Shown: positions 10,136-51,700 of the stretch, piece by piece
Position numbering within the stretch: position 1 is the first letter of the stretch
Layout of the letters: each line of letters opens with the position of its first letter
The notes under the pieces: model-generated
Databases searched by the model: none
What the model saw: only the letters and a program-made list of their open reading frames with translations
What the model was told of the DNA's origin: nothing
NCBI GenBank assembly: GCA_025267735.1
Contig: CM046304.1
Span: 15,748,001-15,812,000 of the forward strand
Origin: Mactra quadrangularis
Lineage: Eukaryota > Mollusca > Bivalvia > Venerida > Mactridae
Direction: 5' to 3'
Length of the DNA: 64,000 nt
Position numbers and translations under genes: made by a program

Positions 10136-10453
10136 ACCAGTAGGGCGTTCAGTTACCGCGAACATTACAAAACGTTCCGTAACGATACATTCGGAACTCC
10201 TCGTTCATTCGCTGCAAATAACCACGGACATATTTAGACGCTATTTTGAATCTACCGGTGTTAAAGTAAACAAATATATGATCGTTTACGCATTGAGTGT
10301 TGTTTCGTTTTTAATCTGTAAATTTTGAAACATCACTCATTGCCTTAACGATCACATATAATTTGTGTATTAGATTAGATTATTCGCAGCGAATGGCCGA
10401 GGAGTTCCGAATGTATCGTTATGTACCGTTCTGTAATTGAACATGCTACTGGT
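10136..10453. mobile_element. Fold-back MITE (family 1), copy A
   Basis: Arms of about 85 bp face each other. The left contains GTTCAGTTACCGCGAAC then CATTCGGAACTCCTCG; the right is its near reverse complement ending GAACATGCTACTGGT. Related copies lie at 58905-59228 and 63317-63620. The 105-residue open frame across it is an accident of the repeat. Confidence 0.8.
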
Positions 10454-21204: not shown

Positions 21205-21947
21205 GATGCACAGTGTCATTGAATCAATGACGAGGTTAATCAGGTTGATATCAGCATGATAATACAAGTATTAGGGAGATATCATTCTCGTACCTAGAGG
21301 ATATCAGGAGCCTTGATACTACCTAGATCGGGAATCTTGATTCCCCCTGGGTATGAGAATGGGAGATATTTAACTGTAACAAGTTCAAGTTGCTTCAAAG
21401 TCAATCGTACATGACCAGAGATAAGGCATGATTTGTTCCATTGCTTCTATCGACAAATTCACTATACTTAAAATGTAATTTCACACGGACTTGATACAAT
21501 GTTCATAAAACTTGTTAAGTGTGCTCGATTTATAGATACATAAATTGAACACACGAACGAATAGAAATAAAGAATCTAAAGAGACAGCACAAGTTACCAA
21601 TTTAGCATATATCAAATAATGAATTCGAGAACTGAACGAAATGCAATTGGACCTCCATTAAAAAAGGGAGTTACAAAAGTGTTTCGTTAAGCCCCCAATA
21701 TGTACTTCTTAGAGTATAATTTTGGGTATCCTATCCTAGCTTTGTACTGAGTATAAGAATAATTCGAGATACATACTTTCGTGTTGTACAAAGTCAAGCT
21801 TAACAAGTTACAGTTAATTATTTCCCAAATAGAAAAAAAGACAAACACTCAGAAAGCACACCTTATCGTAGAGCAATATTTGCTCAGGTATGCTAAAAGA
21901 CCATGCAGTTATATTTTAATAAATATGAAATACACAAATAACACCCA
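21205..21947. other. Left flank of the Harbinger tandem
   Basis: No gene recognised. A palindrome-like TCTCGTACCTAGAGGATATC block lies at about 21285. No 3-bp target duplication matching the right flank (40414 onward) can be seen beside the element. Confidence 0.4.
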
Positions 21948-22080
21948 GGCCCCGGTTTCACAAAAAAACTTAAGTCCATTAGTGAACTCAAACTCAAATA
22001 GTGAGCTCATTTTGAGTTGAGAATTTGAGTTGTGTTTCACAAACAAAGTAACGACTCAATAACGAACTCAGCAATTGAGT
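21948..22080. repeat. Left terminal and subterminal repeats, copy 1
   Basis: The 14-bp terminal inverted repeat is followed by repeated ACTCAA/TTGAGT motifs, some as near-palindromes (GAGCTCATTTTGAGTTGAG, CAATTGAGTTGAGTC). Such subterminal clusters are the expected binding sites for the Myb-like partner protein; that assignment is inferred. Confidence 0.8.
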
Positions 22081-22141
22081 TGAGTCTGTTAATTTGAGAC
22101 AGCTATTATGCTATCTCAAATCAAAAGACTCAGACTCAAAA

Positions 22142-24846
22142 ATGGCTTCTTTCGAGGAGAGAATCAACAGGATTGAGCGTTACAATCGTGTTGAGCGTGT
22201 ATTTCGTGACCGCTCCAATCCATTAGAGGTTCTTTCTGAAAAAGAGATTAGGGACAGATATAGATTCTACCCAGAATCTATCTTGTCTATTCTTGGTTTG
22301 CTTGTAAACACGTTAGAGAGGGGAACGCTCCGTTCGTCGCCCCTCCCACCACTTACATCTCTGTTAGTGACCCTCCAGTTTTTTGCTACTGGAGGTCACT
22401 ATATCAACATTGGAGACATCCATGGAGTTTCCAAAGCATCAGTGTGCCGTGCTGTGAAACAGGCATCGCGTGCAATTGCGCAGCTGGCTGGATATTTCAT
22501 AAAATTCCCGTCTGACACAGTGATGGATGTGCAGCGACAGTTTTATAATGTTGCAAGTAAGTAAGACTTTGATTGGTCGGACCAGTATCTAATGTAAACA
22601 AATTATCGTTTAGTCGACGGCCAATATTTCTATTTATAGAGCTATAAGTAATAGACAGAGTAATCTCCCGCTGCCTTGTGTTAATCAAGTAAACACGGAG
22701 TTGCGGTTCTTTGCACACATTTATATTTTCTTAATTATTGGATAGAATAATTTTTTTCAACTTATAAAATTAAAATGTCATATCATGTATGGAGGAATAT
22801 AATGATTCTATAACACACTTATTAGAAACCGGAGGCTATGTTTATATACATTTATGTACAACACACAGTTAAAAGGGTAAAGATCAATGTCCATACTAAA
22901 GATTAGTGTTAAATTAAACTTGTATATCAACTGTACAGAAATTTACATCTTTGCCTCTAATCTTAAAAGTTGATCATTTGGATGAAGTGAAGAAAAATGG
23001 AATTATAATTGCTTATAAGTTGTTAATAAACATGTTAGCAATAACTTTAGGACATAAGTGATTTCATTGAAATGCATTAAAATTGCGAGAAAGATCACAC
23101 TGAATGTTAATGTGTCCCGATATTTGTATTTTGCAGGGTTCCCTAGAGTTATTGGATGCATAGACTGTACCCATATTAAAATTATAGCACCAAGTATAAA
23201 TGAACCGGATTATGTTAACAGAAAGGGATATCATTCAATGAATGTACAGGTATTTGTGAATTTATTCACATTTAGATTATCAAATACTTCATTATATACC
23301 ATAATTTATTAACTTACACAATGTCTTTGTATCAATAAAGTATGACTGGCTCAATATGAAGTTTGTTTGTTCTCTGACAAACTAATTTAAAGTTGGAAAT
23401 GTGATAATGGGATAGTAATAATTATTTGAAATATGAATTTCCATCAAAGATTATCACCATGCACTAAAACGTATGTATACATTAATTACATAATTGGAAG
23501 CATCATGCAATGTTGTTAGATGCAAGAAACATTGTGATGTCCACAGTGTATATTGTACAGCATTATATAACATATGTTATTTATTTCAGATGGTTTGTGA
23601 TGCAAGTTTTAAAATTACAAATGTGGTTGCCAAATGGCCAGGAAGTGTACATGACAGTCGTATATTCAGAGAGTCACAACTATGTCAACTTATGGAGAAT
23701 GGTATGTACCGTTATACAATTTATTAAATTCTCTGAACATATGTCTATGTATATAGCGATCACTTACAATAACAATCATAAAGCTTAATTAAAAAAAAAT
23801 TGGAATCTTTAAGAAATACACCAATGTATATATGATCAGTATTCATTCTGCAAGATTTTATTGTTATTACAATTTTGACATTTTACAACTGCTAGCAAAT
23901 TGTACACATGGCAATAAATGTACATTACTAGGCAATAAAAGTTACTGAACAATTAATAATACCTATAGTACCATTCAAACCAGAATGTTAACATTGACTA
24001 TTGTTTCCTTTTCAGGACAGACCAACAGTTTATTACTAGGAGACTCCGGGTATCCATGCAGGCCATTCCTTATGACCCCATATTCTAATCCTAGAACACC
24101 AGTCCAAGAAAGGTATTTCATTTTTTATATTATATTTAATATCAATTGACTGATTATTATAGTGTTTTGCATAATATATGATAAATACTTCATCAACAGA
24201 ATCACTTGATGGACACTACATCATATTATGACGGTGAAGAGCTTTTATTAGACAGCTAGGTAGTTCTGGAAGTTTAATCATGTTAAGAAAGTATCATGAA
24301 CATTTATGTGCAAAGAATGATACTAAGTTAAAGTTTAACATGTTTATGTAATATCTACTACATACACATGTCATTGAAATATCCAGGTTATTTGGTAGTT
24401 TAAATACTAATATACATTACAGTATTTCTCTTCTTGATAGTTACTTTTTTTATATGTATAACATTTTGTATATAATATATAATAAAGAATCTTCATCCAT
24501 GTTTTAAATTGTTCTCCAACATATATATAATTTGTGTGTATGTGTGTGTTGTTATACTCGTAGATTCAACTCAGCACTGACAAGAACTAGAGTAATAATA
24601 GAACAGACATTTGGTGTGTTGAAAAGAAGATTTCCATGCTTATCATATGGTCTGAGATTAAACATCAAGTCAGTCCCTGATGTAGTGGTCAGCTGTGTTG
24701 TATTACACAATTTTGGAATTGAAAATGGAGATTGCTATCCAAGATATCAAGAAGTGATTGAAGACCAACAGATAATACCATTAAATGAAGATGTGACAGG
24801 AAGAAGGTACAGAGATAGTATTGCAGCAGCCTATTTTTCAAATTGA
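22142..24846 (+). CDS. HARBI1-like DDE transposase, copy 1 (five exons, apparently intact)
   Basis: Exons are 22142-22556, 23137-23249, 23590-23701, 24016-24112 and 24564-24846. All have GT/AG borders and compatible phases, giving about 339 residues, close to the usual HARBI1 size (~350). Residues about 87-115 ([20 protein letters not shown]) form the helix-turn-helix of the family. The DDE_4-type nuclease core follows: [10 protein letters not shown] (Asp148), [11 protein letters not shown] (Asp198), [12 protein letters not shown] (Asp223) and [17 protein letters not shown] (Glu259). Asp223 to Glu259 fits a D-35-E spacing; which of Asp198/Asp223 is the second catalytic residue I leave open. 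I chose the ATG at 22142 because the conserved-looking sequence starts there; an in-frame ATG at 22094 would add 16 residues read from subterminal repeat. The protein should cut the 14-bp ends. No disabling mutation was seen. Confidence 0.85.
22370..22395. repeat. Hairpin CCTCCAGT/ACTGGAGG in transposase exon 1
   Basis: Eight-base arms CCTCCAGT and ACTGGAGG surround an eight-base loop (TTTTTGCT). The 429-bp inversion in copy 2 has its inner breakpoint inside this hairpin. Confidence 0.85.
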
Positions 24847-27097
24847 AGGTCGGTATTAAAAACAAACAAGCACAAAATTGTTTTTGAATTTAATACAACA
24901 GTATAAAAAAGTTTCATTTCAAAACAGATAATATTGAAACTTTAAATCACATATGTATGTTTATTATCACAGAAAGTTTTATCAACATCTACATAAAGAA
25001 AAATGATGATAAAAAATTTTAAATAACAAAGAAGGAGAGCAGTCCATATTTTAGGAGTAAGTCAGTGATGGTGCATATGATGTGTTTAATACAGTAAATG
25101 ACACAGATAACTTAACCAAATTCACTTCAATGAAACTAAACAGTAGTTTTAAATTCGAAAGCAATATAACATTCCATACATATTTAACAATAACATTGTA
25201 CAGTCATTTTGTACAATAACACAAAGACATAAATGTTATTAGTAAAATATTCAAATGATTTATTTCCAGATCTACAAATAGAATACAAAGAACCGAAGAC
25301 ATGTACAATGCCATATTGAAAAACTTGTAGCATAAATGCAAACATTTTCATCTCAGATGCATCATTGTGTAATGCTGTTTGAATTTGAAATATAACAGAA
25401 TGAATGATTTTAAATGTTATGTCAGGAAATATAGTAATGAATTGTTCATTATATGTCCAGAATACAGGAATTGTAAACAATTTGTGACTAAATGTTTGAA
25501 GTATTTATCACTTGTGACACATTGTATTTAATGTTTATCATTTGTGACCAAATGTTTGAAGTGTTTATTATTTGTGACCAAATGTTTGAAGAGTTTATTT
25601 TTTGTGAACAATTGTTTTAAAATGTTCATTATTTTTGACAAATATATGAAGTTTTAATTATGTCACAGAATGTATGGAATGTTCATTTTGTCAAAAAAAT
25701 ACATGATTTGTTTTATGTGTAGATAGATATTATCATTCTGTGTCAAAAACATGTAAAAATCTAAAAAAATACAATTTATGATTACAAATTAATAATGAAC
25801 TGATGAATATGTATTAGATATATGAATATATTTAAATAAAATAACATATATATTCATTAACAACAAAACAGTATTCATATTTTTATTATATATAATAAAA
25901 TTCTCCTTTTCTAAGTACTGTATTATTTTCTACATATAAAAGATTGATAAGTTTGACCATACTTGGTATAAACCAGTATTTGTTAAGAATGTACATTTCT
26001 CTATGATCTACAGAAATAATACATTCCAGTATGAAATGAAATTCATATTCTAATTGGTTACAACTGAAATCTTTTTTTCATTCATTTGATTTCTTATTGG
26101 ATTAAACCAACTACAATATTCAATGCGTTATTTAAGAAATGGTATCACTATGACAAAATTAATCCATGTAAAAAAATACTGTAAAATAAAATTTGAAATA
26201 TGATTATAAAATTTAAGTACAACTAAATTTGTCAGTCTAGTATTCCAATATTGTATAAACCGATCATTAAGTTGTTCCTTAAATAGTGAAATAAATCATT
26301 ACCAATATCCTGATAAATCAACATTCCAAATAAACCCAATAGACATTTGAATTAAACATTTTAATGTTCAACATGCAGACACCAATTCTTCATTAAATTA
26401 TACATAATGTGTGCATATGTATTATCTTTTATTGTCAGTCTTCTTAACCAATACTTAAGCATTTTAAATGAATTGATTGTCTTAAAAGAAACAAGCACTA
26501 ATTCCCCATAAACAAACATATTTTGAGTGTTTTTTCTTATCCAAATGTTGTACAAAAAAAACCAATAAACTCTTCCTATAGATAAAATATTAAAAAAAAA
26601 AAAAGTTTACATCAATGAATAATGATGGGCAATATATGTTTATCAAACAGTTTGAGCTTATGTTATGGCAAAATGTATATGTATAATATGTATAAATTTG
26701 TACAGGTACTTATCTAAAGTAAACATTGCCTTATAAGCCTGGTTAGATCATGCACTTGAATCTGTAAAGTTAAAAACGATTTCCTTGGTAATTAAAAGCT
26801 AAGTTTATAAAATACATGTACATGTAATTACCTCCCTTTCTAAAATCATTATATTGGTTTTGGCATCATTCACTTAAAAATTGTAATATTTCACAATAAT
26901 CATATTTGAAGTCATATGCAGATTTTGTTAAAAAAGCAATATTGTCTGAATACATATCAATGATTGACAAATAGTATAATTTGAATGTCACAGAACTATA
27001 CATGAAATGTTTATTATACATAGAAGTAAACATGAATTGTAAAAAGTATGTAACAGAAACATAATTATAAGGTGATACAGAATATACTCCGTTTATT
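24847..27097. other. Intergenic region between convergent Harbinger genes, copy 1
   Basis: Apart from the 34-bp minisatellite and a poly(A) run (26592-26604, 13 A), nothing recognisable is encoded. Short ORFs in both orientations look random. Confidence 0.5.
25480..25690. repeat. 34-bp minisatellite in the Harbinger interior, copy 1
   Basis: About six degenerate units carry TTTGTGACCAAATGTTTGAA followed by GTGTTTATTA. They lie between the convergent genes and are repeated identically at about 34713-34923 in copy 2. Confidence 0.8.
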
Positions 27098-30000
27098 TTA
27101 ATTTATTTCTTGCATTATCTTCTTTTTCTTCAGCTCAAATAATTCTTGTTGTTGCTGTTTTTTTGCTTCTAGAATTTCGATTTCAATTAATATTTTCTTT
27201 CTTTCTAAATCATATAAGTCTTCATAGGCAATTTTTCTTTTAGATGAATTTTTCTTTGTGTAAGTTATTGTATTCTCTGAAGATAAAGGAGCATAATAAA
27301 AGTTAAAATAACACTTAAAATTTGCCATTTCTTACTAAAATGCAACAGTAATAAATTAAAAACTTACACAAAATCATCATAAAATTGTACATGCTTATGA
27401 CTGCACTAGCTAATCAATTAATAAAGCACATATAATAGATATTTCATCTCAATCAAAATTGTAAAGCATTGACAGAAAACTATGGAGGCGTATTTCTGCC
27501 ATCAGATAACCACATAACTAACCAGTTATTTAAATGGTTAACTTGTTACGGCAGTGTTTAATTCTGGGCAATTTTATAGCCGTTTATGGTCTATATTCCC
27601 AATTTTAAATCATACCTTGCTTTCCTAAATTTCAATCCAAAATTCCCATTTTAACCTTAAGCATTATTCTTTTGAAAACAGTAGTTGTAAGTATGTTTCA
27701 GCTAAACATAATATGCCACAGCAACATTTATTTTCTATTTTTTTCCCTTACAAAATGAAGAATATATATAAAAACTTTGCTATATCTTCTATTTATATTA
27801 AGCTTGTGAGATATTCTATCCCACTTTAAAACATATAATGCCAATAAAACTCCTAAATTATTAAGGACATGGGCCAAATTCCCAAATTTGGGGAAAAAAT
27901 CATAGTACCGTATAAAGTTAGTATAAGTAGTTAACTATCATAACTAGTTAACCTCTTAATTAAATTGTTAGTTACATGGTTATCTTATGACAGAAATAAA
28001 CACCCATAGAAAGAGAATTTAGAAATTGTTTAATCATAATTGGGGAAAATAGACATTTTTGAGAAGGCTGAATTCATTATGCAATTTTATAGTGCACCAC
28101 TATATTTCAAGAATGAAAGCAGGCGTGTTGATTTTGTGTATTCTTTAATTAAAATAGAACAAAAAATTATCTCATCCTAATAAACAGTACATGACTGTAA
28201 TGTGTAAGAAGGTATTTCATTCTGTAAAAATATATAGCACTTTAAAATTGAAGGATGCCACAGAGAATTACATACCTTTATCACAAGTACTATTATCGCC
28301 AGCACATGTTGGGAGGTTTGATGGCATATCACTTACTTCATGTTGTTCAGAGGGTTCTGTAAAACTACTGAAAATAAATATCATTTATAAATATGTAGCT
28401 AGACAGTTATTGATAGAAAGCTTGCATGAATTCTTTTTTATACCAATAAAATTTAAGTGTCACTACAAAGGAAAGATTGATTAATACCAATAAACATACT
28501 CATGGAGAATATTTTAAAATTCTAAAATTCTAATACAATTTAATAACAATATCTTCAATGTAATTATATTCAAAATACTTAATATGTGTAATGATTACAA
28601 AAATTATTATTGTCATTATTTGTTCAAAAGGGTTAATGATTGGCTTACTTATAGATATTTTCAACACGGATTTAAACAGTAAGTCAGATAAAATGTACAT
28701 AATGTTTAATATTTCAAAACACATAACCTAAAATTATCATCTTATTTATGTTTAACTTTCAAAAGAAATCTAAAAGTCACTCATTTAATTGCTTTGTTAA
28801 TCCTGAGATACACTTTGAAAACAACTGGTCACTTTCAAATTGTTTCTAACATAGTTGGCGGCTGAAAATTATTCAAAAATTAAAGTTAGATTTGTTTAAT
28901 TGTCATTAATTAAAATTTTACCTATTCACAACATGACATATTTCGTAAGAGATATAATATCGTTATAAGTACATCAAAGTTTATACCTTTCAATGACATT
29001 ATTCCCAATAAATACATCTTGCACTGGCACATATGAAGTCATAGGAACCCCTAAAATATGAAAAAAGTTAGTCAAAATTAATTACAGATGTAAATATTTT
29101 TCTGTGATTCTAATCTTGTTACCTTATAATAGAATTATTGCAGTTTTATGTTTTAACACAATTGACAAAACATGATTTTATTTTACTTGATATACATAAT
29201 GATGGCTAGTAATATTCAGCAACAAGTAAAATTTATTCATATTGAAATTAATTTGACAAGCCTATATCTGTTTTATTATAATAATTCATGTTAAAATGTT
29301 ATAAGTGCACAGGGAATCAATCATTGCCTAGAGTATAAGGACATTAAGATGGGTGATTCAAGTGCACCTAAGTGATTGAATTCTTAAAACCCAAGCCCAC
29401 AACCAAATTCATGATGCCTGTGAACAGGTAACAGTATAGTCAGTAGATCAACTAATCTGATTGTTTTTTGTCACAACTTTAATGTTGTTCAACTACAAAT
29501 TCATTCAGAAAAGTCATACTGAGTAGTGAGTAGTCAGCTAAAATGTTTTTACTCTGTTCTATGTAATAATTATGTACAAATAAATAGAAATTTGTATAAT
29601 TAACACACTCAAATATAAATGATAAAATATTACCACTTAAAGTATCAATTCCTTCTTGAAGACCATTTAGCTGAGCTGCATTATGATCCTTTAAGTGATC
29701 AATAATTAAACATTCTGCAGCATTTAATGACTGACTGGGCCCACCCCAGTTTTCTTGCTTCCTTCATACTTGTCTTTTGCTTTTAAAAAGGTAGTATTTG
29801 TATAATGTTATGAAGTGATAATGGAAACTAAGCAAACATTTAAGATAGCATAGTCACTGAATATTTGAGAGGAATGCACAATCAAAATCTCTTAATATAT
29901 CAAGTGAAAATAAATGTACTAAGGAAAATTCCAAAATAGGGAATATATACTGATAAAACAATTACATGAAAGATTAACTCCAACATGCCTTGAGGCTCTC

Positions 30001-30949
30001 TAATGGATGATTTAAATAATCCATGCAACTCATATTTGAATTTTAGTTATCTATGTAGCTAATTAAAGTTACAATTAGTATCATCACTTGTATATTTTAT
30101 GATTTGCAGGTACCAAGAGGGCAGTATGGATTATGTTTATCATTATATTCTTAACATCAAACAAATAAACATCAAACTTTCAAGACTGTCACCTTTCCTT
30201 TGTTATTTTTGTATGGTTAGTTGACAAATTAACTTTTTCCACATATTTAGAATAAGTAATTTTCATCATCACAGATTAAACGTATTAGATTTTTCAGTAC
30301 TCAATGCTTGATGGAATTTCAATCATTATGATAAAATAAAGGTTATTACTTACCTCTTGTCTTTAGATTGTTAAACATTTTCTTCACCTCAATAGGTGTT
30401 CTCAGACTTGAAACCTGACCTGATCTGAAAAATAATGTGATAAAAAGATCCCATCAATGGTATCATTATCTCTTTTTTGTCTTAGAAAGAATGTAAAACA
30501 ATTATAATGTCAAATAAATTAACATGGTAAAATAACTTTAGATATTGCTCATACATGTACTGTTACCTGCTAATTCGGAGAAACTGACCAAACAAATGAA
30601 TCGTCCAAGAACGGATGTGACTGGGGACGGATCGTCTGACATTCGATATTCATACAACATTTTGGCTGAACTCATACTGAGAAACGGACATACCGATACG
30701 GCGATAGACAAAATAAAGTTTAACATGATATACTCACGAATTCAATTCATCGGCAATTTTTTGCCACATCATTTCCTTCTCCTTTGCACCACACGTAGCC
30801 CCCCGAAACTTCCCGAAAAGTAGGTCACTGTGATCCAAAATGGAGACAACGGCAGCGAGCCTCTCCCCCTCGCTCCAGTTGGTTGATCTCTTCTTCTCCA
30901 TTTTGGTCGTCTGCTTTGTTATGACATACGTTCGCGGAATTTCGATCAT
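27098..30949 (-). pseudogene. Myb/SANT-like DNA-binding protein of Harbinger, copy 1 (six exons, one frameshift)
   Basis: Minus-strand exons are 30949-30738, 30424-30354, about 29779-29634, 29050-28987, 28367-28276 and 27276-27098, all with GT/AG borders. Residues about 20-95 form a Myb/SANT-like (trihelix-type) domain: TNWSEGERLAAVV, LLFGKFRGA, EMMWQKIADELN and PIEVKKMFNNLKTRA. The acidic middle is followed by a C-terminal charged coiled coil (DLERKKILIEIEILEAKKQQ). In Harbinger elements this partner binds DNA and brings the transposase to the ends. Exon 3 is 146 nt where phase needs 147 or an equivalent +1: after KKTG the frame shifts at a GGGG run (29744-29747) and stops at 29724-29726, while the family-like SLNAAECLIIDHLKDHN lies in the next frame. 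Unless this is a sequencing error, the protein is truncated after about 110 residues. Confidence 0.75.
27480..28009. mobile_element. MITE nested in Myb-like gene intron, copy 1
   Basis: The left end CTATGGAGGCGTATTTCTGC and the right end (reverse complement CTATGGGTGTTTATTTCTGT) start imperfect inverted arms of about 63 bp containing AGATAACCA and AACTAAC. It is 530 bp with no ORF and lies between exons 6 and 5 of the Myb-like gene. An identical copy at 36714-37243 shows that it arrived before the tandem duplication. Confidence 0.7.
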
Positions 30950-31039
30950 TCTTTCCTCCGTTTTGTTTACTTCCGGAAGAGTTGCCGTTTTAACGCCGCT
31001 TACGTCAACAAAAATAAAGAAAAGATGAGTCGCTTATTT

Positions 31040-31179
31040 TACTCAGTTGAGATTGAGTTTAAGACGCGTCGTGAAACGAACTCAAACGTTCGTACTCAAC
31101 TGAGTCTGTTAATCGACTTAAGTCAAATATAGAGTTTGAGTTTGAGTATGAGAATAAGTTTTTTCGTGAAACCGGGGCC
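31040..31179. repeat. Right terminal and subterminal repeats, copy 1
   Basis: GAGTTTGAGTTTGAGTATGA and related GAGT/ACTC motifs precede GTGAAACCGGGGCC. The terminus is followed by a single T (31180) and then by the inverted left end of copy 2. Confidence 0.8.
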
Positions 31180-31180
31180 T

Positions 31181-31609
31181 GGAGGGTCACTAACAGAGAT
31201 GTAAGTGGTGGGAGGGGCGACGAACGGAGCGTTCCCCTCTCTAACGTGTTTACAAGCAAACCAAGAATAGACAAGATAGATTCTGGGTAGAATCTATATC
31301 TGTCCCTAATCTCTTTTTCAGAAAGAACCTCTAATGGATTGGAGCGGTCACGAAATACACGCTCAACACGATTGTAACGCTCAATCCTGTTGATTCTCTC
31401 CTCGAAAGAAGCCATTTTTGAGTCTGAGTCTTTTGATTTGAGATAGCATAATAGCTGTCTCAAATTAACAGACTCAACTCAATTGCTGAGTTCGTTATTG
31501 AGTCGTTACTTTGTTTGTGAAACACAACTCAAATTCTCAACTCAAAATGAGCTCACTATTTGAGTTTGAGTTCACTAATGGACTTAAGTTTTTTTGTGAA
31601 ACCGGGGCC
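31181..31609 (-). repeat. In-place inversion of the Harbinger left end (429 bp)
   Basis: The segment is the reverse complement of 21948-22376, inserted at the exact position the forward segment should occupy. It contains the 14-bp terminus (now ending at 31609), subterminal repeats and transposase codons 1-78 read on the minus strand (ATG at 31415). That reading frame runs on through the adjacent right terminus of copy 1 to 31059, producing a meaningless 134-residue ORF. Both breakpoints fall in CTGG/CCAG, so the exact joint is ambiguous by up to two bases. Confidence 0.9.
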
Positions 31610-34079
31610 AGTTTTTTGCTACTGGAGGTCACTATATCAACATTGGAGACATCCATGGAGTTTCCAAAGCATCAGTGTGCCGTGCTGTGAAACAGGCATC
31701 GCGTGCAATTGCGCAGCTGGCTGGATATTTCATAAAATTCCCGTCTGACACAGTGATGGATGTGCAGCGACAGTTTTATAATGTTGCAAGTAAGTAAGAC
31801 TTTGATTGGTCGGACCAGTATCTAATGTAAACAAATTATCGTTTAGTCGACGGCCAATATTTCTATTTATAGAGCTATAAGTAATAGACAGAGTAATCTC
31901 CCGCTGCCTTGTGTTAATCAAGTAAACACGGAGTTGCGGTTCTTTGCACACATTTATATTTTCTTAATTATTGGATAGAATAATTTTTTTCAACTTATAA
32001 AATTAAAATGTCATATCATGTATGGAGGAATATAATGATTCTATAACACACTTATTAGAAACCGGAGGCTATGTTTATATACATTTATGTACAACACACA
32101 GTTAAAAGGGTAAAGATCAATGTCCATACTAAAGATTAGTGTTAAATTAAACTTGTATATCAACTGTACAGAAATTTACATCTTTGCCTCTAATCTTAAA
32201 AGTTGATCATTTGGATGAAGTGAAGAAAAATGGAATTATAATTGCTTATAAGTTGTTAATAAACATGTTAGCAATAACTTTAGGACATAAGTGATTTCAT
32301 TGAAATGCATTAAAATTGCGAGAAAGATCACACTGAATGTTAATGTGTCCCGATATTTGTATTTTGCAGGGTTCCCTAGAGTTATTGGATGCATAGACTG
32401 TACCCATATTAAAATTATAGCACCAAGTATAAATGAACCGGATTATGTTAACAGAAAGGGATATCATTCAATGAATGTACAGGTATTTGTGAATTTATTC
32501 ACATTTAGATTATCAAATACTTCATTATATACCATAATTTATTAACTTACACAATGTCTTTGTATCAATAAAGTATGACTGGCTCAATATGAAGTTTGTT
32601 TGTTCTCTGACAAACTAATTTAAAGTTGGAAATGTGATAATGGGATAGTAATAATTATTTGAAATATGAATTTCCATCAAAGATTATCACCATGCACTAA
32701 AACGTATGTATACATTAATTACATAATTGGAAGCATCATGCAATGTTGTTAGATGCAAGAAACATTGTGATGTCCACAGTGTATATTGTACAGCATTATA
32801 TAACATATGTTATTTATTTCAGATGGTTTGTGATGCAAGTTTTAAAATTACAAATGTGGTTGCCAAATGGCCAGGAAGTGTACATGACAGTCGTATATTC
32901 AGAGAGTCACAACTATGTCAACTTATGGAGAATGGTATGTACCGTTATACAATTTATTAAATTCTCTGAACATATGTCTATGTATATAGCGATCACTTAC
33001 AATAACAATCATAAAGCTTAATTAAAAAAAAATTGGAATCTTTAAGAAATACACCAATGTATATATGATCAGTATTCATTCTGCAAGATTTTATTGTTAT
33101 TACAATTTTGACATTTTACAACTGCTAGCAAATTGTACACATGGCAATAAATGTACATTACTAGGCAATAAAAGTTACTGAACAATTAATAATACCTATA
33201 GTACCATTCAAACCAGAATGTTAACATTGACTATTGTTTCCTTTTCAGGACAGACCAACAGTTTATTACTAGGAGACTCCGGGTATCCATGCAGGCCATT
33301 CCTTATGACCCCATATTCTAATCCTAGAACACCAGTCCAAGAAAGGTATTTCATTTTTTATATTATATTTAATATCAATTGACTGATTATTATAGTGTTT
33401 TGCATAATATATGATAAATACTTCATCAACAGAATCACTTGATGGACACTACATCATATTATGACGGTGAAGAGCTTTTATTAGACAGCTAGGTAGTTCT
33501 GGAAGTTTAATCATGTTAAGAAAGTATCATGAACATTTATGTGCAAAGAATGATACTAAGTTAAAGTTTAACATGTTTATGTAATATCTACTACATACAC
33601 ATGTCATTGAAATATCCAGGTTATTTGGTAGTTTAAATACTAATATACATTACAGTATTTCTCTTCTTGATAGTTACTTTTTTTATATGTATAACATTTT
33701 GTATATAATATATAATAAAGAATCTTCATCCATGTTTTAAATTGTTCTCCAACATATATATAATTTGTGTGTATGTGTGTGTTGTTATACTCGTAGATTC
33801 AACTCAGCACTGACAAGAACTAGAGTAATAATAGAACAGACATTTGGTGTGTTGAAAAGAAGATTTCCATGCTTATCATATGGTCTGAGATTAAACATCA
33901 AGTCAGTCCCTGATGTAGTGGTCAGCTGTGTTGTATTACACAATTTTGGAATTGAAAATGGAGATTGCTATCCAAGATATCAAGAAGTGATTGAAGACCA
34001 ACAGATAATACCATTAAATGAAGATGTGACAGGAAGAAGGTACAGAGATAGTATTGCAGCAGCCTATTTTTCAAATTGA
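31610..34079 (+). pseudogene. HARBI1-like transposase, copy 2, 5' end lost by inversion
   Basis: Exon remnants are 31610-31789 (from codon 79), 32370-32482, 32823-32934, 33249-33345 and 33797-34079, identical in structure to copy 1. The DDE core (IDCTH, HDSR, GDSGY, IEQTFG) and all splice sites survive, but the start codon and residues 1-78 point the other way at 31181-31415. Without them no normal transposase can be made. Copy 1 could in principle act on the ends in trans. Confidence 0.85.
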
Positions 34080-34712
34080 AGGTCGGTATTAAAAACAAAC
34101 AAGCACAAAATTGTTTTTGAATTTAATACAACAGTATAAAAAAGTTTCATTTCAAAACAGATAATATTGAAACTTTAAATCACATATGTATGTTTATTAT
34201 CACAGAAAGTTTTATCAACATCTACATAAAGAAAAATGATGATAAAAAATTTTAAATAACAAAGAAGGAGAGCAGTCCATATTTTAGGAGTAAGTCAGTG
34301 ATGGTGCATATGATGTGTTTAATACAGTAAATGACACAGATAACTTAACCAAATTCACTTCAATGAAACTAAACAGTAGTTTTAAATTCGAAAGCAATAT
34401 AACATTCCATACATATTTAACAATAACATTGTACAGTCATTTTGTACAATAACACAAAGACATAAATGTTATTAGTAAAATATTCAAATGATTTATTTCC
34501 AGATCTACAAATAGAATACAAAGAACCGAAGACATGTACAATGCCATATTGAAAAACCTGTAGCATAAATGCAAACATTTTCATCTCAGATGCATCATTG
34601 TGTAATGCTGTTTGAATTTGAAATATAACAGAATGAATGATTTTAAATGTTATGTCAGGAAATATAGTAATGAATTGTTCATTATATGTCCAGAATACAG
34701 GAATTGTAAACA

Positions 34713-34923
34713 ATTTGTGACTAAATGTTTGAAGTATTTATCACTTGTGACACATTGTATTTAATGTTTATCATTTGTGACCAAATGTTTGAAGTGTTTA
34801 TTATTTGTGACCAAATGTTTGAAGAGTTTATTTTTTGTGAACAATTGTTTTAAAATGTTCATTATTTTTGACAAATATATGAAGTTTTAATTATGTCACA
34901 GAATGTATGGAATGTTCATTTTG
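34713..34923. repeat. 34-bp minisatellite in the Harbinger interior, copy 2
   Basis: Same array as at 25480-25690, with no visible change in unit number. Confidence 0.8.
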
Positions 34924-36331
34924 TCAAAAAAATACATGATTTGTTTTATGTGTAGATAGATATTATCATTCTGTGTCAAAAACATGTAAAAATCTAAAAA
35001 AATACAATTTATGATTACAAATTAATAATGAACTGATGAATATGTATTAGATATATGAATATATTTAAATAAAATAACATATATATTCATTAACAACAAA
35101 ACAGTATTCATATTTTTATTATATATAATAAAATTCTCCTTTTCTAAGTACTGTATTATTTTCTACATATAAAAGATTGATAAGTTTGACCATACTTGGT
35201 ATAAACCAGTATTTGTTAAGAATGTACATTTCTCTATGATCTACAGAAATAATACATTCCAGTATGAAATGAAATTCATATTCTAATTGGTTACAACTGA
35301 AATCTTTTTTTCATTCATTTGATTTCTTATTGGATTAAACCAACTGCAATATTCAATGCGTTATTTAAGAAATGGTATCACTATGACAAAATTAATCCAT
35401 GTAAAAAAATACTGTAAAATAAAATTTGAAATATGATTATAAAATTTAAGTACAACTAAATTTGTCAGTCTAGTATTCCAATATTGTATAAACCGATCAT
35501 TAAGTTGTTCCTTAAATAGTGAAATAAATCATTACCAATATCCTGATAAATCAACATTCCAAATAAACCCAATAGACATTTGAATTAAACATTTTAATGT
35601 TCAACATGCAGACACCAATTCTTCATTAAATTATACATAATGTGTGCATATGTATTATCTTTTATTGTCAGTCTTCTTAACCAATACTTAAGCATTTTAA
35701 ATGAATTGATTGTCTTAAAAGAAACAAGCACTAATTCCCCATAAACAAACATATTTTGAGTGTTTTTTCTTATCCAAATGTTGTACAAAAAAAACCAATA
35801 AACTCTTCCTATAGATAAAATATTAAAAAAAAAAAAAAGTTTACATCAATGAATAATGATGGGCAATATATGTTTATCAAACAGTTTGAGCTTATGTTAT
35901 GGCAAAATGTATATGTATAATATGTATAAATTTGTACAGGTACTTATCTAAAGTAAACATTGCCTTATAAGCCTGGTTAGATCATGCACTTGAATCTGTA
36001 AAGTTAAAAACGATTTCCTTGGTAATTAAAAGCTAAGTTTATAAAATACATGTACATGTAATTACCTCCCTTTCTAAAATCATTATATTGGTTTTGGCAT
36101 CATTCACTTAAAAATTGTAATATTTCACAATAATCATATTTGAAGTCATATGCAGATTTTGTTAAAAAAGCAATATTGTCTGAATACATATCAATGATTG
36201 ACAAATAGTATAATTTGAATGTCACAGAACTATACATGAAATGTTTATTATACATAGAAGTAAACATGAATTGTAAAAAGTATGTAACAGAAACATAATT
36301 ATAAGGTGATACAGAATATACTCCGTTTATT

Positions 36332-39300
36332 TTAATTTATTTCTTGCATTATCTTCTTTTTCTTCAGCTCAAATAATTCTTGTTGTTGCTGTTTTTTTGC
36401 TTCTAGAATTTCGATTTCAATTAATATTTTCTTTCTTTCTAAATCATATAAGTCTTCATAGGCAATTTTTCTTTTAGATGAATTTTTCTTTGTGTAAGTT
36501 ATTGTATTCTCTGAAGATAAAGGAGCATAATAAAAGTTAAAATAACACTTAAAATTTGCCATTTCTTACTAAAATGCAACAGTAATAAATTAAAAACTTA
36601 CACAAAATCATCATAAAATTGTACATGCTTATGACTGCACTAGCTAATCAATTAATAAAGCACATATAATAGATATTTCATCTCAATCAAAATTGTAAAG
36701 CATTGACAGAAAACTATGGAGGCGTATTTCTGCCATCAGATAACCACATAACTAACCAGTTATTTAAATGGTTAACTTGTTACGGCAGTGTTTAATTCTG
36801 GGCAATTTTATAGCCGTTTATGGTCTATATTCCCAATTTTAAATCATACCTTGCTTTCCTAAATTTCAATCCAAAATTCCCATTTTAACCTTAAGCATTA
36901 TTCTTTTGAAAACAGTAGTTGTAAGTATGTTTCAGCTAAACATAATATGCCACAGCAACATTTATTTTCTATTTTTTTCCCTTACAAAATGAAGAATATA
37001 TATAAAAACTTTGCTATATCTTCTATTTATATTAAGCTTGTGAGATATTCTATCCCACTTTAAAACATATAATGCCAATAAAACTCCTAAATTATTAAGG
37101 ACATGGGCCAAATTCCCAAATTTGGGGAAAAAATCATAGTACCGTATAAAGTTAGTATAAGTAGTTAACTATCATAACTAGTTAACCTCTTAATTAAATT
37201 GTTAGTTACATGGTTATCTTATGACAGAAATAAACACCCATAGAAAGAGAATTTAGAAATTGTTTAATCATAATTGGGGAAAATAGACATTTTTGAGAAG
37301 GCTGAATTCATTATGCAATTTTATAGTGCACCACTATATTTCAAGAATGAAAGCAGGCGTGTTGATTTTGTGTATTCTTTAATTAAAATAGAACAAAAAA
37401 TTATCTCATCCTAATAAACAGTACATGACTGTAATGTGTAAGAAGGTATTTCATTCTGTAAAAATATATAGCACTTTAAAATTGAAGGATGCCACAGAGA
37501 ATTACATACCTTTATCACAAGTACTATTATCGCCAGCACATGTTGGGAGGTTTGATGGCATATCACTTACTTCATGTTGTTCAGAGGGTTCTGTAAAACT
37601 ACTGAAAATAAATATCATTTATAAATATGTAGCTAGACAGTTATTGATAGAAAGCTTGCATGAATTCTTTTTTATACCAATAAAATTTAAGTGTCACTAC
37701 AAAGGAAAGATTGATTAATACCAATAAACATACTCATGGAGAATATTTTAAAATTCTAAAATTCTAATACAATTTAATAACAATATCTTCAATGTAATTA
37801 TATTCAAAATACTTAATATGTGTAATGATTACAAAAATTATTATTGTCATTATTTGTTCAAAAGGGTTAATGATTGGCTTACTTATAGATATTTTCAACA
37901 CGGATTTAAACAGTAAGTCAGATAAAATGTACATAATGTTTAATATTTCAAAACACATAACCTAAAATTATCATCTTATTTATGTTTAACTTTCAAAAGA
38001 AATCTAAAAGTCACTCATTTAATTGCTTTGTTAATCCTGAGATACACTTTGAAAACAACTGGTCACTTTCAAATTGTTTCTAACATAGTTGGCGGCTGAA
38101 AATTATTCAAAAATTAAAGTTAGATTTGTTTAATTGTCATTAATTAAAATTTTACCTATTCACAACATGACATATTTCGTAAGAGATATAATATCGTTAT
38201 AAGTACATCAAAGTTTATACCTTTCAATGACATTATTCCCAATAAATACATCTTGCACTGGCACATATGAAGTCATAGGAACCCCTAAAATATGAAAAAA
38301 GTTAGTCAAAATTAATTACAGATGTAAATATTTTTCTGTGATTCTAATCTTGTTACCTTATAATAGAATTATTGCAGTTTTATGTTTTAACACAATTGAC
38401 AAAACATGATTTTATTTTACTTGATATACATAATGATGGCTAGTAATATTCAGCAACAAGTAAAATTTATTCATATTGAAATTAATTTGACAAGCCTATA
38501 TCTGTTTTATTATAATAATTCATGTTAAAATGTTATAAGTGCACAGGGAATCAATCATTGCCTAGAGTATAAGGACATTAAGATGGGTGATTCAAGTGCA
38601 CCTAAGTGATTGAATTCTTAAAACCCAAGCCCACAACCAAATTCATGATGCCTGTGAACAGGTAACAGTATAGTCAGTAGATCAACTAATCTGATTGTTT
38701 TTTGTCACAACTTTAATGTTGTTCAACTACAAATTCATTCAGAAAAGTCATACTGAGTAGTGAGTAGTCAGCTAAAATGTTTTTACTCTGTTCTATGTAA
38801 TAATTATGTACAAATAAATAGAAATTTGTATAATTAACACACTCAAATATAAATGATAAAATATTACCACTTAAAGTATCAATTCCTTCTTGAAGACCAT
38901 TTAGCTGAGCTGCATTATGATCCTTTAAGTGATCAATAATTAAACATTCTGCAGCATTTAATGACTGACTGGGCCCACCCCAGTTTTCTTGCTTCCTTCA
39001 TACTTGTCTTTTGCTTTTAAAAAGGTAGTATTTGTATAATGTTATGAAGTGATAATGGAAACTAAGCAAACATTTAAGATAGCATAGTCACTGAATATTT
39101 GAGAGGAATGCACAATCAAAATCTCTTAATATATCAAGTGAAAATAAATGTACTAAGGAAAATTCCAAAATAGGGAATATATACTGATAAAACAATTACA
39201 TGAAAGATTAACTCCAACATGCCTTGAGGCTCTCTAATGGATGATTTAAATAATCCATGCAACTCATATTTGAATTTTAGTTATCTATGTAGCTAATTAA

Positions 39301-40183
39301 AGTTACAATTAGTATCATCACTTGTATATTTTATGATTTGCAGGTACCAAGAGGGCAGTATGGATTATGTTTATCATTATATTCTTAACATCAAACAAAT
39401 AAACATCAAACTTTCAAGACTGTCACCTTTCCTTTGTTATTTTTGTATGGTTAGTTGACAAATTAACTTTTTCCACATATTTAGAATAAGTAATTTTCAT
39501 CATCACAGATTAAACGTATTAGATTTTTCAGTACTCAATGCTTGATGGAATTTCAATCATTATGATAAAATAAAGGTTATTACTTACCTCTTGTCTTTAG
39601 ATTGTTAAACATTTTCTTCACCTCAATAGGTGTTCTCAGACTTGAAACCTGACCTGATCTGAAAAATAATGTGATAAAAAGATCCCATCAATGGTATCAT
39701 TATCTCTTTTTTGTCTTAGAAAGAATGTAAAACAATTATAATGTCAAATAAATTAACATGGTAAAATAACTTTAGATATTGCTCATACATGTACTGTTAC
39801 CTGCTAATTCGGAGAAACTGACCAAACAAATGAATCGTCCAAGAACGGATGTGACTGGGGACGGATCGTCTGACATTCGATATTCATACAACATTTTGGC
39901 TGAACTCATACTGAGAAACGGACATACCGATACGGCGATAGACAAAATAAAGTTTAACATGATATACTCACGAATTCAATTCATCGGCAATTTTTTGCCA
40001 CATCATTTCCTTCTCCTTTGCACCACACGTAGCCCCCCGAAACTTCCCGAAAAGTAGGTCACTGTGATCCAAAATGGAGACAACGGCAGCGAGCCTCTCC
40101 CCCTCGCTCCAGTTGGTTGATCTCTTCTTCTCCATTTTGGTCGTCTGCTTTGTTATGACATACGTTCGCGGAATTTCGATCAT
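36332..40183 (-). pseudogene. Myb/SANT-like DNA-binding protein of Harbinger, copy 2 (same frameshift)
   Basis: Minus-strand exons are 40183-39972, 39658-39588, about 39013-38868, 38284-38221, 37601-37510 and 36510-36332, matching copy 1. The Myb/SANT-like domain and C-terminal coiled coil are unchanged. The GGGG run responsible for the frameshift is present at 38978-38981, so the lesion either predates the duplication or is a shared assembly or sequencing artefact. Confidence 0.75.
36714..37243. mobile_element. MITE nested in Myb-like gene intron, copy 2
   Basis: Same nested element as at 27480-28009. Confidence 0.7.
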
Positions 40184-40273
40184 TCTTTCCTCCGTTTTGT
40201 TTACTTCCGGAAGAGTTGCCGTTTTAACGCCGCTTACGTCAACAAAAATAAAGAAAAGATGAGTCGCTTATTT

Positions 40274-40413
40274 TACTCAGTTGAGATTGAGTTTAAGACG
40301 CGTCGTGAAACGAACTCAAACGTTCGTACTCAACTGAGTCTGTTAATCGACTTAAGTCAAATATAGAGTTTGAGTTTGAGTATGAGAATAAGTTTTTTCG
40401 TGAAACCGGGGCC
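40274..40413. repeat. Right terminal and subterminal repeats, copy 2
   Basis: Same GAGTTTGAG-rich region and GTGAAACCGGGGCC end as copy 1. It is followed by unique flank TGGTATTCAATAAATAATG. Confidence 0.8.
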
Positions 40414-40724
40414 TGGTATTCAATAAATAATGTCTGTAAATCATGTTTTGTTGTTTTACGTCTTGTAGATTCATACATAGGCATCTTTATCAAACTTGGT
40501 TACGATGCTGCAATTGTAAACAGACCTGCAAAAATATAAAACAACAACAACAATAATAACATTATAATACTCTCATTGTAAAGAAAAATTCCCCTCATCA
40601 CAATTTTCATTTTAAAACATACAGGTTGGTAGATTCCTTCATTATATCCTGCTCATCATTTTGCATAGATTAGATTATTACTTACCATAACATAACAAAA
40701 TGAAAACATTTTCCAGACAATAAT

Positions 40725-47615: not shown

Positions 47616-47627
47616 GCGAATTCTGGT

Positions 47628-48062
47628 CTAGCTATCCTCCCATAAAGGGCCCTTCACTAGATTGCTCAGAATTATGTGTTTAAACTCTTAAGTATAATTC
47701 TGATCTAGCTATCCTCCCATAAAGGGCCCTTCACCAGATTGCTCAGAATTATGTGTTTAAACTATTAAGAATAACTCTGATCTAGCTATCCTCCCATAAA
47801 GGGGCCTTCACTAGATTGCTCAGAATTATGTGTTTAAATTCTTAAGTATAATTCCGATCTAGCTATCCTCCCATAAAGGGCCCTTCACTAGATTGCTCAG
47901 AATTATGTGTTTAAACTCTTAAGAATAATTCCGATCTAGCTATCCTCCCGTAAAATGGGTCCTTCACTAGATTGCTCAGAATTATGTGTTTAAACTTTTA
48001 AGTATAACTCCGATCTAGCTATCCTCCCATGAAGGGCCCTTCACTAGATTGCTCAGAGTTAT
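47628..48062. repeat. 77-bp satellite, six units
   Basis: CTAGCTATCCTCCCATAAAG starts at 47628, 47705, 47782, 47859, 47936 and 48015, so the spacing is exactly 77 bp except for one unit of 79. Each unit also holds GGGCCCTTCACTAGATTGCT and AATTATGTGTTTAAACTCTT. Units differ by only a few bases, with no ORF. Confidence 0.95.
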
Positions 48063-48797
48063 TGATAAATTTAATTATTTTTAATTTAGAAATGCTTATA
48101 TTTTTCTTTTAACTGTCAAATACATTGCTTATAGACTAAGTACATCATTATCAAGCATCATTAGTACTAATTCCATGTATCTTAAAAATGCCAAAAGTAA
48201 TTATCTTTAAATTTTGTCAGATTAAAAAAAGGCAAAAGACACAAAATGTTAAAAATATTATGTATAATGACTTATATTATTAAATACATAGATGTGTAGG
48301 TAGTAATACGTATCATTTGCTTATGAAATGTATGGTCTAAATGTCTAAATTCAATTGACCTAACAAATTCAATACAAAATTGTAAACAATAGAATCTAAA
48401 AATAATAATAATAAATATTTCATTTCTACTTATCTATGACATTGATTTCACGGATATCTTTCTTGCAGAGAAATACTGTTTTGAAAATGTCTCAATGTTT
48501 TCTTATTATATTACTTAGTTTAAAGTAACATTTAATGAATAATATTAAACTGCTATCACTATTTCATTTTAGACAAATTGTGTATACTCTGCTATGTAAC
48601 TCATAATTAGAAAAAAATAGGTAAAGAAAAGTTCAATGAAGATAGAAACCAAAAAGTTGACAATAAGGACATTATTACATGATATTATAAATGAGAAAGT
48701 TACCATAACCTTCATGAGAAAAAGGACAGGCCAAGTTGGGTGTCTATTTCTTGTCTTTAAAACAGATTCAATCAGAGTCAGCTTCGATTGACTTTCA

Positions 48798-51700
48798 TTT
48801 TGTGTTCATGTTACCTTAATTAAGCAATGAAACTTACAAGAGAGTTATGATAGAATGACATTCCATATGTGTATGTTATTTTAAATGAAGAGAGTTTTTA
48901 TCTGGGAATAATATAATAATGACATGTCACAAAGTAAGAATGTTTCTTAATTGAAGATAGGCACCTACATGAGAGTAGATAGAATGACATGACATAATGT
49001 GTGCTATTATATGAAATGAGCAAAGATACTTACCTGAAGACAATGTAAGAATGACATGTCATATTGTGAGCATGTTATCGTAAAGAAGATGGAAACCTAC
49101 ACGAAAGTTATGATAGAACATGTCCTATTATGTGTATGTTATCTGAATAAAAACAATATACTTCATGAGAGAAATGAAAAATGATACGCCATATTGTGTG
49201 TACGTTATCTTAATTAATAATACACGCATATATGAGGGTTGATAAGATATAACATGATATATTGTTTGTATGTTATCTAAATTGAAAATAGAAACTTACA
49301 TGGGAGTGATGATAAAATGACATGACATATTTTATGTATGTTTTGAGGTAATGGTATAATGGCATGCCTTATTTTGTGCATGTGTTGAGGTAATGATAGA
49401 ATGACAGGTCATATTGCGTGTTTGTTATCTTAAATGAAGATAGATACTTACCTACGGATAAAATAAGAATGTTAAGTTAAATTTGTGTATGTCATCCGAA
49501 TTGAAGATAGAAACCTGCATGAGAAAAATGATAGATGACATGCCGTATTTTGCGAATATCAATTAAATTGAAGATAGAAATCTGCATAAACATGATGATA
49601 GAATGATATTTTTATTGTGTATATGTTGTCTAAATTGATGACAGAAATCAATATCAGAGTAAAGATAGTGTGACATGCCATATGATACGTATTTGATCTT
49701 AATTCAAGTAAGAAATCTTCATGAGCGTAATGATTGAATGACAGGTCATATTAAAAGTTTGTGGTCTTGATTAAAGACAGATACTTACCTTGGAATTATG
49801 TAAGAAAGACATGTAATATTGTATATATGTTATCTCAATTAAAGATAGAAACCTACATGAGAGTACTGATAGAATGACATATTGTGAGTATATTTAATTA
49901 AATGAAGATAGATACTTACCTCGGAAAATAAAATAATGACATGCCATATGGTTTGTATATTATCTTAAATTAAAAAAAGAAACTTATATGAGAGAATAGA
50001 TATAATGACATGGCATATTTTGCAAATGTTATCTTAACTGAAGAAATTAATCAGCATAAAATTGATTACAGAATGGCATGTCGTATTAAGTGTATGTTAT
50101 CTTAATTGAAGATAGAAACCTACATGGAAGTACTGATAGAACGAAATATCACATTGTGTGTATGTTATCTTTCATGAAAATAGAAACTGTGTGTATGCTA
50201 TCTTTCATGAAAATGAAAAACCAACATGAGAGTACTAAATCTACTGATAGAATGATCTGACTAGTTGTATGTATGTTATCGTTATTGAAGATATGAACTT
50301 GTTCAAGAGAGTAAGAATTGAATGACATGTCCTTACTTAATTGAAGAAAAATACTTACCTGGGATAATGTAACAATGACATGTCATGTATTGTTAGTATA
50401 TTTTTTAATTGAAGATAGAAACTTACATGGGAGTAATAAGAGAGAATAACATGCCAATATGTGTGTATGTAATTTTGAATGGGATTGAGTTTTACAATTG
50501 AAAAATGTCAGAATTGCATATTATTTTGAGATTATGTTATCTTACTAGAAGAAGGAAAACTACATAATGGCAATGCTTGAATGACATGTCATATTGTGTA
50601 TATACTTCCTAATTGAAGATAGACACCTACATGATAGTAATAATAGAACGACATGTCATATTGTGTATATGTTATTTTAATATAAGACATATACTTACCT
50701 TAGAATAATGTAACAATGATATTATGTCAAATTGTGAGTCTGATATTTTAATCGAAGATAGATACCCCCATGAGAGTACTGATAAAATAGCATATCATAT
50801 TGTATGCATGTTTTCTTAAATGAAAATTGAAATCTACATGAGAATAATAAAAGAACAGCATGTCAATAAGTGCGTATATGTTTTCTTAATAAAATATAGA
50901 CATCTACATGATAAGAGTATTGATAGAATGACATGCCATACATTGTCTATGTTCTCTTGAATGAAAATAGAAATCGACGTAAGATTACATTTTGTATTGA
51001 TAAAATGACAGGTCATATCCTTTAAATGGTATAAAAACGAAGGCCTTGCAACAAGAATTACATGTTATTGTGCGTGAATGTTATCTAAAATGAAGATTAA
51101 AACTACATACCATTAATGATAAAATGACATGCCATATTGCATGTATTATATCCTAATTGAAGATTTATTCTAATTGAAGACAGAAACCTACATGAGAGTA
51201 ATGATAGAATGGCATGTCATTATGCATGTATTTTATCCTAATTGAAGACAGAACACTACATGAGAGTAATGATAGAATGACATGCCATATTGCATATATT
51301 TTATCCTAATTGAAGATAGAACACTACACGAGAGTAATGAAAGAATGACATGTCATATTGCATGTATTTTATCCTAATTGAAAACAGAAACCTACATGAG
51401 AGTAATGATAGAATGACATGCCCTATTGCCTGTATTTTATCCTAATTGAAGACAGAAAACTACATGAGAGTAATGATAGAATGATATGCCATATCGCATG
51501 TATTTTATCCTAATTGAAGACAGAAAACTACACGGGAGTGATGATAGAATGATATGTCATATTGCATGTATTTTATCATAATTTAAGACGGAACACTTCA
51601 TGAAAGTAATGATAGAATGACATGCCATATTGCATGTATTTATCATAATTGAAGACAGAAAACTACAAGAGATTAATGATAGAATGACATGCAATATTGC

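What the first reader, a model, noticed from the sequence alone, without database searches (positions are those of the whole stretch)
31181..31609. 429-bp in-place inversion running from the exact transposon terminus to a hairpin
One breakpoint is within two bases of the left terminus; the other lies in the CCTCCAGT/ACTGGAGG hairpin in transposase exon 1. Both joints share CTGG/CCAG microhomology. The inversion removes the palindrome expected at the dimer junction and disables only copy 2's transposase. It could be an aberrant transposase cut at the terminus with re-ligation in reverse, or resolution of an unstable palindrome.
Basis: partly seen in the sequence, partly recalled or inferred. 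Interest (0 to 1): 0.75.

Follow-up and report, generated by a model that had tools for sequence, protein, structure and literature searches.

The report
Transposon that inserted into itself
Two head-to-tail copies of a jumping gene, the second with its first 427 bases flipped, look like the scar of one misdirected jump in which the element's two ends attacked a site inside the element itself instead of a new place in the genome.

Summary
The inversion is real in the assembled sequence, but "random inversion to a hairpin" is not the best account. The element is a 9,230-bp PIF/Harbinger-type (PHIS) transposon, copy 1 at 21949-31178. At the junction its right terminus (…GGGGC) joins CTG and then the left 427 bp in reverse. 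The reversed left terminus (…GGGGC) then joins CAG and the rest of copy 2. Both termini are therefore attached to opposite sides of one CAG in transposase exon 1 (22376-22378), and CAG is present at both joints. This is the geometry of a transposase strand transfer with a 3-bp target duplication. With termini at GCCCC, among duplication lengths 0-7 only 3 bp reproduces both joints. CWG is the published duplication of the NuwaI group. The exon site matches the published Harbinger3_DR target at 10 of 15 positions, a score reached by 7 of 188 CWG sites in the element, itself included. The hairpin is at chance level.

A single self-insertion can yield both dimer and inversion, either between sister copies or as an autointegration circle recombined into a resident copy. 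I could not separate these routes. Reads and other genome copies were not available (13 of 13 genome searches unanswered).

The parts
21946..21948 (.). CAG flanking the left terminus of copy 1 (outer target duplication, left)
   Evidence: does not match the right outer CTG
21949..31178 (+). Copy 1, PIF/Harbinger-type transposon, 9,230 bp, GCCCCGGTTTCAC...GTGAAACCGGGGC
22142..24846 (+). Transposase gene of copy 1, five exons by my splice model (22142-22556, 23137-23249, 23590-23701, 24016-24112, 24564-24846), 339 aa, DDE_Tnp_4
   Evidence: splice model, GT/AG at each intron; Pfam E 1.4e-41
22376..22378 (+). Target trinucleotide CAG in exon 1, the site to which both termini are joined in the junction
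30737..30949 (-). Myb/SANT-like exon of the second element gene (ORF1) in copy 1
   Evidence: PF13873, E 6.8e-06
31166..31178 (-). Right terminus of copy 1 (GCCCCGGTTTCAC on the minus strand)
31179..31181 (.). CTG, target duplication at joint 1 (right terminus joined to exon 1 reading leftward)
31182..31608 (-). Inverted left end of copy 2 (reverse complement of 21949-22375): left terminus, region upstream of the transposase, first part of exon 1
31059..31415 (-). Fusion ORF of 118 aa: first 79 residues of transposase plus 39 residues read from copy 1's right end
31609..31611 (.). CAG, target duplication at joint 2 (left terminus joined to exon 1 reading rightward)
31612..40412 (+). Remainder of copy 2 to its right terminus
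40413..40415 (.). CTG flanking the right terminus of copy 2 (outer target duplication, right)

Best explanation
A transposase of the PIF/Harbinger (PHIS, CWG-type) kind brought together a right end and a left end of the same element and joined both to one internal CAG in transposase exon 1, in the inverted topology. The right end joined the left-hand side of the target and the left end joined the right-hand side, with a 3-bp CAG duplicated at the two joints. That end-to-target geometry is shown by the sequence; transposase as the agent is inferred. Two routes give this exact product. (a) Hybrid-element or sister-chromatid transposition: the right end of the element on one chromatid pairs with the left end on its sister and inserts into that second copy; one reaction gives dimer plus inversion. 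(b) Autointegration: an excised element attacks itself and closes as an inversion circle, which then recombines by homology into a resident copy. I favour (a) as the shorter route; the sequence does not distinguish them.
For: Both joints start exactly at ...CCGGGGC and continue with CTG-GAGGGTC or CAG-TTTTTTG, the two sides of one CAG. An in-silico product using only copy 1 and one target matches the window from copy 1's right terminus for 3,379 bases, until the first substitution, with a 3-bp duplication; lengths 0, 1, 2, 4, 5, 6 and 7 fail at joint 2, after 430-431 bases. CWG is the duplication reported for NuwaI elements, most of whose autonomous candidates have a DDE transposase and a Myb/SANT ORF (PMC4482050, passages and section 7); this element has both proteins. 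The exon site scores 10 of 15 against the published Harbinger3_DR target AAACACCWGGTCTTT (PMC3016246 passage): 7 of 188 CWG sites in the element (itself included) and 24 of 888 in the rest of the window do as well. Shuffling the consensus flanks gives an equal or better rank in 9 of 2,000 trials. A random breakpoint in the element would fall on such a site at 7 of 9,230 positions (my arithmetic). Inversion circles with target duplications are a described autointegration product of Sleeping Beauty (PMC3952818 section 6), and sister-chromatid or hybrid-end reactions are described for Ac/Ds and P (PMC3744419).
Against: The final sequence equals that of a perfect dimer with one CTG at its junction followed by a simple inversion, so the geometry alone does not exclude it. 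The family's terminus and 3-bp duplication are not verified on other genome copies; a 1-bp duplication with the terminus drawn one base further out gives the same letters. The exon site is not the best in the element: one CWG site scores 12 and one 11. The target consensus comes from a zebrafish element, not this family. Sleeping Beauty autointegrations mostly fell far from the ends (PMC3952818 section 6), whereas this target is 427 bp from one. No reads were seen.
Confidence: 0.8

Rival explanations
1. Dimer first, inversion second: a perfect tandem dimer (right end, CTG, left end) existed, and the left 427 bp of copy 2 was later flipped, by transposase cutting or reversed-ends transposition, between the left terminus and the exon CAG.
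For: It gives letter for letter the same product (follows). Reversed-ends transposition makes inversions in maize (PMC3744419 introduction), with 8-bp target duplications at the endpoints of such rearrangements (PMC9910405 passages).
Against: It needs two events and an unobserved precursor. Right and left ends 3 bp apart would have to be cut at once, which seems sterically hard (inference).
Confidence: 0.1
2. Replication template switching or microhomology end joining (FoSTeS/MMBIR) made a tandem duplication with a short inverted insert at its joint.
For: Joint 1 has 4 bp of shared sequence (CTGG) and joint 2 has 2 bp (CC) if read without a target duplication (read). Duplications with inverted joints are a known signature (own knowledge).
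Against: Both switches would have to fall by chance at the two exact transposon termini and at one CWG site resembling the Harbinger target.
Confidence: 0.06
3. Assembly path artefact: the chromosome holds one copy, an extrachromosomal autointegration circle exists in the sampled tissue, and the assembler walked through the shared 8.8 kb to join them. This overlaps with the best explanation for the origin of the joints; only the chromosomal dimer would be false.
For: A single copy and a circle sharing 8.8 kb would give the same graph path (inference). The copies are nearly identical.
Against: The joints would still be transposase products. Low-copy circles are seldom assembled (inference).
Confidence: 0.06
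4. Cleavage or resolution of an unstable palindrome or hairpin caused the inversion, independently of transposase.
For: A hairpin is present at the second breakpoint, and a forward dimer junction would be palindromic because the termini are inverted repeats.
Against: Hairpins of that size are at chance frequency (8 versus a mean of 5.5 in 20 shuffles), and its letters encode the L-Q-F-F-A-T-G-G stretch, three of whose residues are invariant in 14 aligned transposases. It does not predict a CWG at both joints.
Confidence: 0.03

Closest known systems
NuwaI group of the PHIS (PIF/Harbinger, ISL2EU, Spy) superfamily
   Same: DDE_Tnp_4 transposase plus separate Myb/SANT ORF; CWG trinucleotide at the internal joints; animal host inferred from protein relatives (best hit Mercenaria mercenaria, 63% identity).
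   Different: 9.2 kb against an average of about 4.5 kb for autonomous candidates; terminus begins GCC rather than the usual GGG (PMC4482050 section 7); duplications not verified on other copies.
Sleeping Beauty / piggyBac autointegration, inversion-circle type (PMC3952818)
   Same: Both element ends attack one internal target; inversion products contain two ends and target duplications (model in section 6).
   Different: Those are circles recovered in a cell-culture assay. Here the product lies in an assembled sequence as half of a dimer, and the element is PIF/Harbinger-like.
Alternative transposition of Ac/Ds (SCT, RET) and P hybrid element insertion (PMC3744419)
   Same: Ends of two element copies act together and give tandem duplications or inversions, with target duplications at the joints.
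   Different: The cases in the passages I read concern hAT or P elements and rearranged flanking DNA. Here the target lies inside the element itself, and the superfamily is PHIS.
Mu killer of maize (PMC3440606, start of abstract only)
   Same: An inverted partial duplication of a transposase gene with terminal repeats, from a DNA transposon.
   Different: Here the inverted halves lie 8.8 kb apart and no silencing has been shown.

Membership tests
PHIS superfamily (PIF/Harbinger and relatives) | DDE_Tnp_4 / HARBI1-like transposase | tested here: met
   Pfam PF13359 E 1.4e-41; 1,560 proteins at E<=0.001, of which the 120 listed are largely named HARBI1 where named
PHIS superfamily (PIF/Harbinger and relatives) | Terminal inverted repeats | tested here: met
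   13 bp perfect at all four ends; 25 of 30 terminal bases
NuwaI group | CWG 3-bp target duplication | tested here: inconclusive
   Internal joints show CAG at both sides, 3 bp the only fitting length for a GCCCC terminus; outer flanks are CAG and CTG, not identical; no other copies could be examined
NuwaI group | Second ORF with Myb/SANT domain | tested here: met
   PF13873 E 6.8e-06, 26.4 bits against a curated cutoff of 21.7, for 30949-30737 minus; the full gene was not modelled
NuwaI group | TIR usually beginning GGG | tested here: not met
   Begins GCCCC; the source says 'usually', so this is not strictly defining
Autointegration / alternative-ends transposition product | Left and right termini joined to opposite sides of one target site, target duplicated at both joints | tested here: met
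   the same letters would follow from a flipped dimer
Autointegration / alternative-ends transposition product | Target resembles the transposase's preferred site | tested here: met
   10 of 15; 7 of 188 sites as good, itself included, two of them better; 9 of 2,000 shuffled consensuses as good; consensus from a zebrafish relative
Autointegration / alternative-ends transposition product | Dependence on active transposase | not testable with these tools
   Needs a transposition assay

The most novel reading that the evidence does not exclude
A PIF/Harbinger-type element made a tandem dimer of itself in one hybrid-end self-insertion between sister copies. The product is a germline-carried, self-made regulatory lesion. 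It carries an inverted promoter region and first 79 transposase codons that can yield a truncated transposase or antisense RNA against the family, plus same-facing ends that could drive further rearrangement.
Probability: 0.2. Interest if true: 0.8.

Novelty: new variant of a known kind. Interest (0 to 1): 0.6.

Why it matters
Self-insertion is described as suicidal (PMC3952818 abstract), and is known to me from bacterial Tn10 and from assays with Sleeping Beauty and piggyBac; related two-copy reactions come from maize Ac/Ds and fly P genetics. A sequence-readable case in a PIF/Harbinger-type element would show that such events can persist in a chromosome and can create tandem transposon dimers in one step. 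It also gives a simple search signature for genomes: both termini joined to one internal CWG, with the trinucleotide at both joints.

Tried and rejected
Hairpin or palindrome as cause: rejected, because hairpins of this size are at chance frequency in the element and this one is coding sequence for a partly invariant motif. Repair microhomology as the sole account: kept as a low rival. A 1-bp duplication with TIR GGCCCC fits the joints equally in letters; I preferred 3 bp and GCCCC because CWG is the published duplication and because the outer site, with one C fewer, resembles the published target at 12 of 15 (0 of 888 sites in the rest of the window reach 12; 1 of 188 in the element does). 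Other copies of the element in the genome: not reached.

Early script slip: one search used 21952 as the element start for its CWG count; the counts used here come with 21949.

Papers: PMC4482050 passages and section 7; PMC3744419 abstract, passages, sections 4 and 10; PMC3952818 passages and section 6; PMC2836001, PMC3016246, PMC9910405 and PMC3260210 passages; PMC3440606 and all others search listing only. From their listings, none of the papers holding 'alternative transposition' plus 'Harbinger' (7 papers) or 'autointegration' plus 'Harbinger' (4 papers) looked to describe such an event; I did not read those texts, and most subscription journals are not held, so I do not claim it is absent from print.

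Full report
What is there. The window, probably from a bivalve mollusc judging by the transposase relatives (best hit Mercenaria mercenaria, 63% identity), holds two head-to-tail copies of a DNA transposon. Copy 1 runs from 21949 to 31178 (9,230 bp) and begins and ends GCCCCGGTTTCAC...GTGAAACCGGGGC; the 13-bp terminus occurs four times without mismatch in the window. It has a five-exon transposase of 339 aa by my splice model, which matches DDE_Tnp_4 (E 1.4e-41), and an opposite-strand exon with a Myb/SANT domain (E 6.8e-06). This is the two-protein layout of PIF/Harbinger-type elements (PMC2836001 passages). Copy 2 differs over the 8.8 kb in common by two substitutions and one poly-A base, so the duplication is recent or the two copies have been homogenised.

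The inversion. 31179-31609 is the exact reverse complement of 21948-22378, 431 of 431 bases. Read letter by letter, copy 1's right terminus ...CCGGGGC is followed by CTG and GAGGGTCACTAAC, which is exon 1 read leftward from the CAG at 22376-22378. The inverted left segment (31182-31608) then ends in the left terminus ...CCGGGGC, followed by CAG and TTTTTTGCTAC, which is exon 1 read rightward from the same CAG. So the right end of one copy and the left end of the other are fixed to the two sides of one trinucleotide, and the trinucleotide is present at both joints.

Why this points to transposase. A cut-and-paste transposase joins its two ends to staggered positions on opposite strands of a target; repair duplicates the stagger (established knowledge). 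When the target lies inside the element, one topology inverts the segment between one end and the target and leaves the duplication at both joints. I built this product from copy 1 alone for every target position and for duplication lengths 0-7. Only CAG at 22376 with length 3 runs through both joints, matching 3,379 bases until the first substitution; the other seven lengths fail at the second joint, after 430-431 bases. A 1-bp duplication with the terminus drawn one base further out is the same letters under another name. Three base pairs, CWG, is the published duplication for the NuwaI group (PMC4482050).

Independent support from the target. The zebrafish relative Harbinger3_DR prefers AAACACCWGGTCTTT (PMC3016246 passage). 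The exon site scores 10 of 15. Of the 188 CWG sites in the element 7 score as high, the exon site included; one of them scores 12 and one 11, so it is not the best. Of 888 CWG sites in the rest of the window 24 score 10 or more. With the flanks of the consensus shuffled, the exon site ranks as well in 9 of 2,000 trials. The chromosomal insertion site itself scores 10 of 15 as it stands, and 12 of 15 if one C of a C run is left out; none of the 888 sites reaches 12.

The hairpin. Perfect 8-bp hairpins with loops of 3-12 occur 8 times in the element against a mean of 5.5 (range 0-19) in 20 mononucleotide shuffles. The letters encode LQFFATGG, in which L78, A82 and G84 are invariant among 14 aligned transposases. 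The hairpin needs no role.

Routes. Sister-chromatid or hybrid-end transposition: the right end of one chromatid's element pairs with the left end of its sister and both insert into that second copy. The product is left flank, intact copy 1, CTG, inverted left segment, CAG, rest of copy 2, right flank, which is what is seen, in one reaction. Autointegration followed by homologous recombination of the inversion circle into a resident copy gives the same sequence in two steps. Reversed-ends transposition of an existing dimer also gives it, but needs the dimer first. Precedents: the inversion-circle product of autointegration (PMC3952818), where, against my reading, Sleeping Beauty targets lay mostly far from the ends while this one is 427 bp from the left end; sister-chromatid and reversed-ends transposition of Ac/Ds and hybrid insertion of P (PMC3744419). 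I favour the first route on economy only.

Consequences (inferred). Copy 2 lacks the first 78 transposase residues in place. The inverted piece carries the region upstream of the transposase and its first 79 codons, now reading into copy 1's right end as a 118-aa fusion frame and pointing toward copy 1's Myb exon. The inverted pair 21949-22375 / 31182-31608 could form double-stranded RNA if transcribed through; Mu killer in maize is a precedent for an inverted transposase duplication that silences its family (PMC3440606, start of abstract). The ends at 31178 (right) and 31608 (left, reversed) face the same way; directly oriented 5' and 3' ends are the substrate of sister-chromatid transposition in maize (PMC3744419 introduction). 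None of these consequences was tested.

Limits. An extrachromosomal circle merged by the assembler cannot be excluded, though the joints would still be transposase products. The rivals' odds are not all exclusive: the assembly rival overlaps with the best explanation.

Noticed in passing
21946-21948 and 40413-40415: The outer trinucleotides flanking the array differ (CAG left, CTG right), and the left flank has one C more than the Harbinger-like target would need.
   Followed up: partly
31059-31415 (-): A 118-aa fusion frame: first 79 residues of transposase plus 39 residues from the right end of copy 1, reading toward the Myb exon.
   Followed up: partly
48774-52747: Large tandem array of a roughly 68-bp unit; Tandem Repeats Finder rows run from 62% matches at the low end to 89% at the high end.
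   Followed up: no
47619-48062: 77-bp tandem repeat, 5.7 copies, 92% matches.
   Followed up: no
665-1007: 12-bp tandem repeat with open frames on both strands (112 aa plus, 150 aa minus).
   Followed up: no
10137-10453, 58902-59227, 63322-63619: Dispersed repeat of about 300 bp, three copies at 85-88% identity, in both orientations.
   Followed up: no
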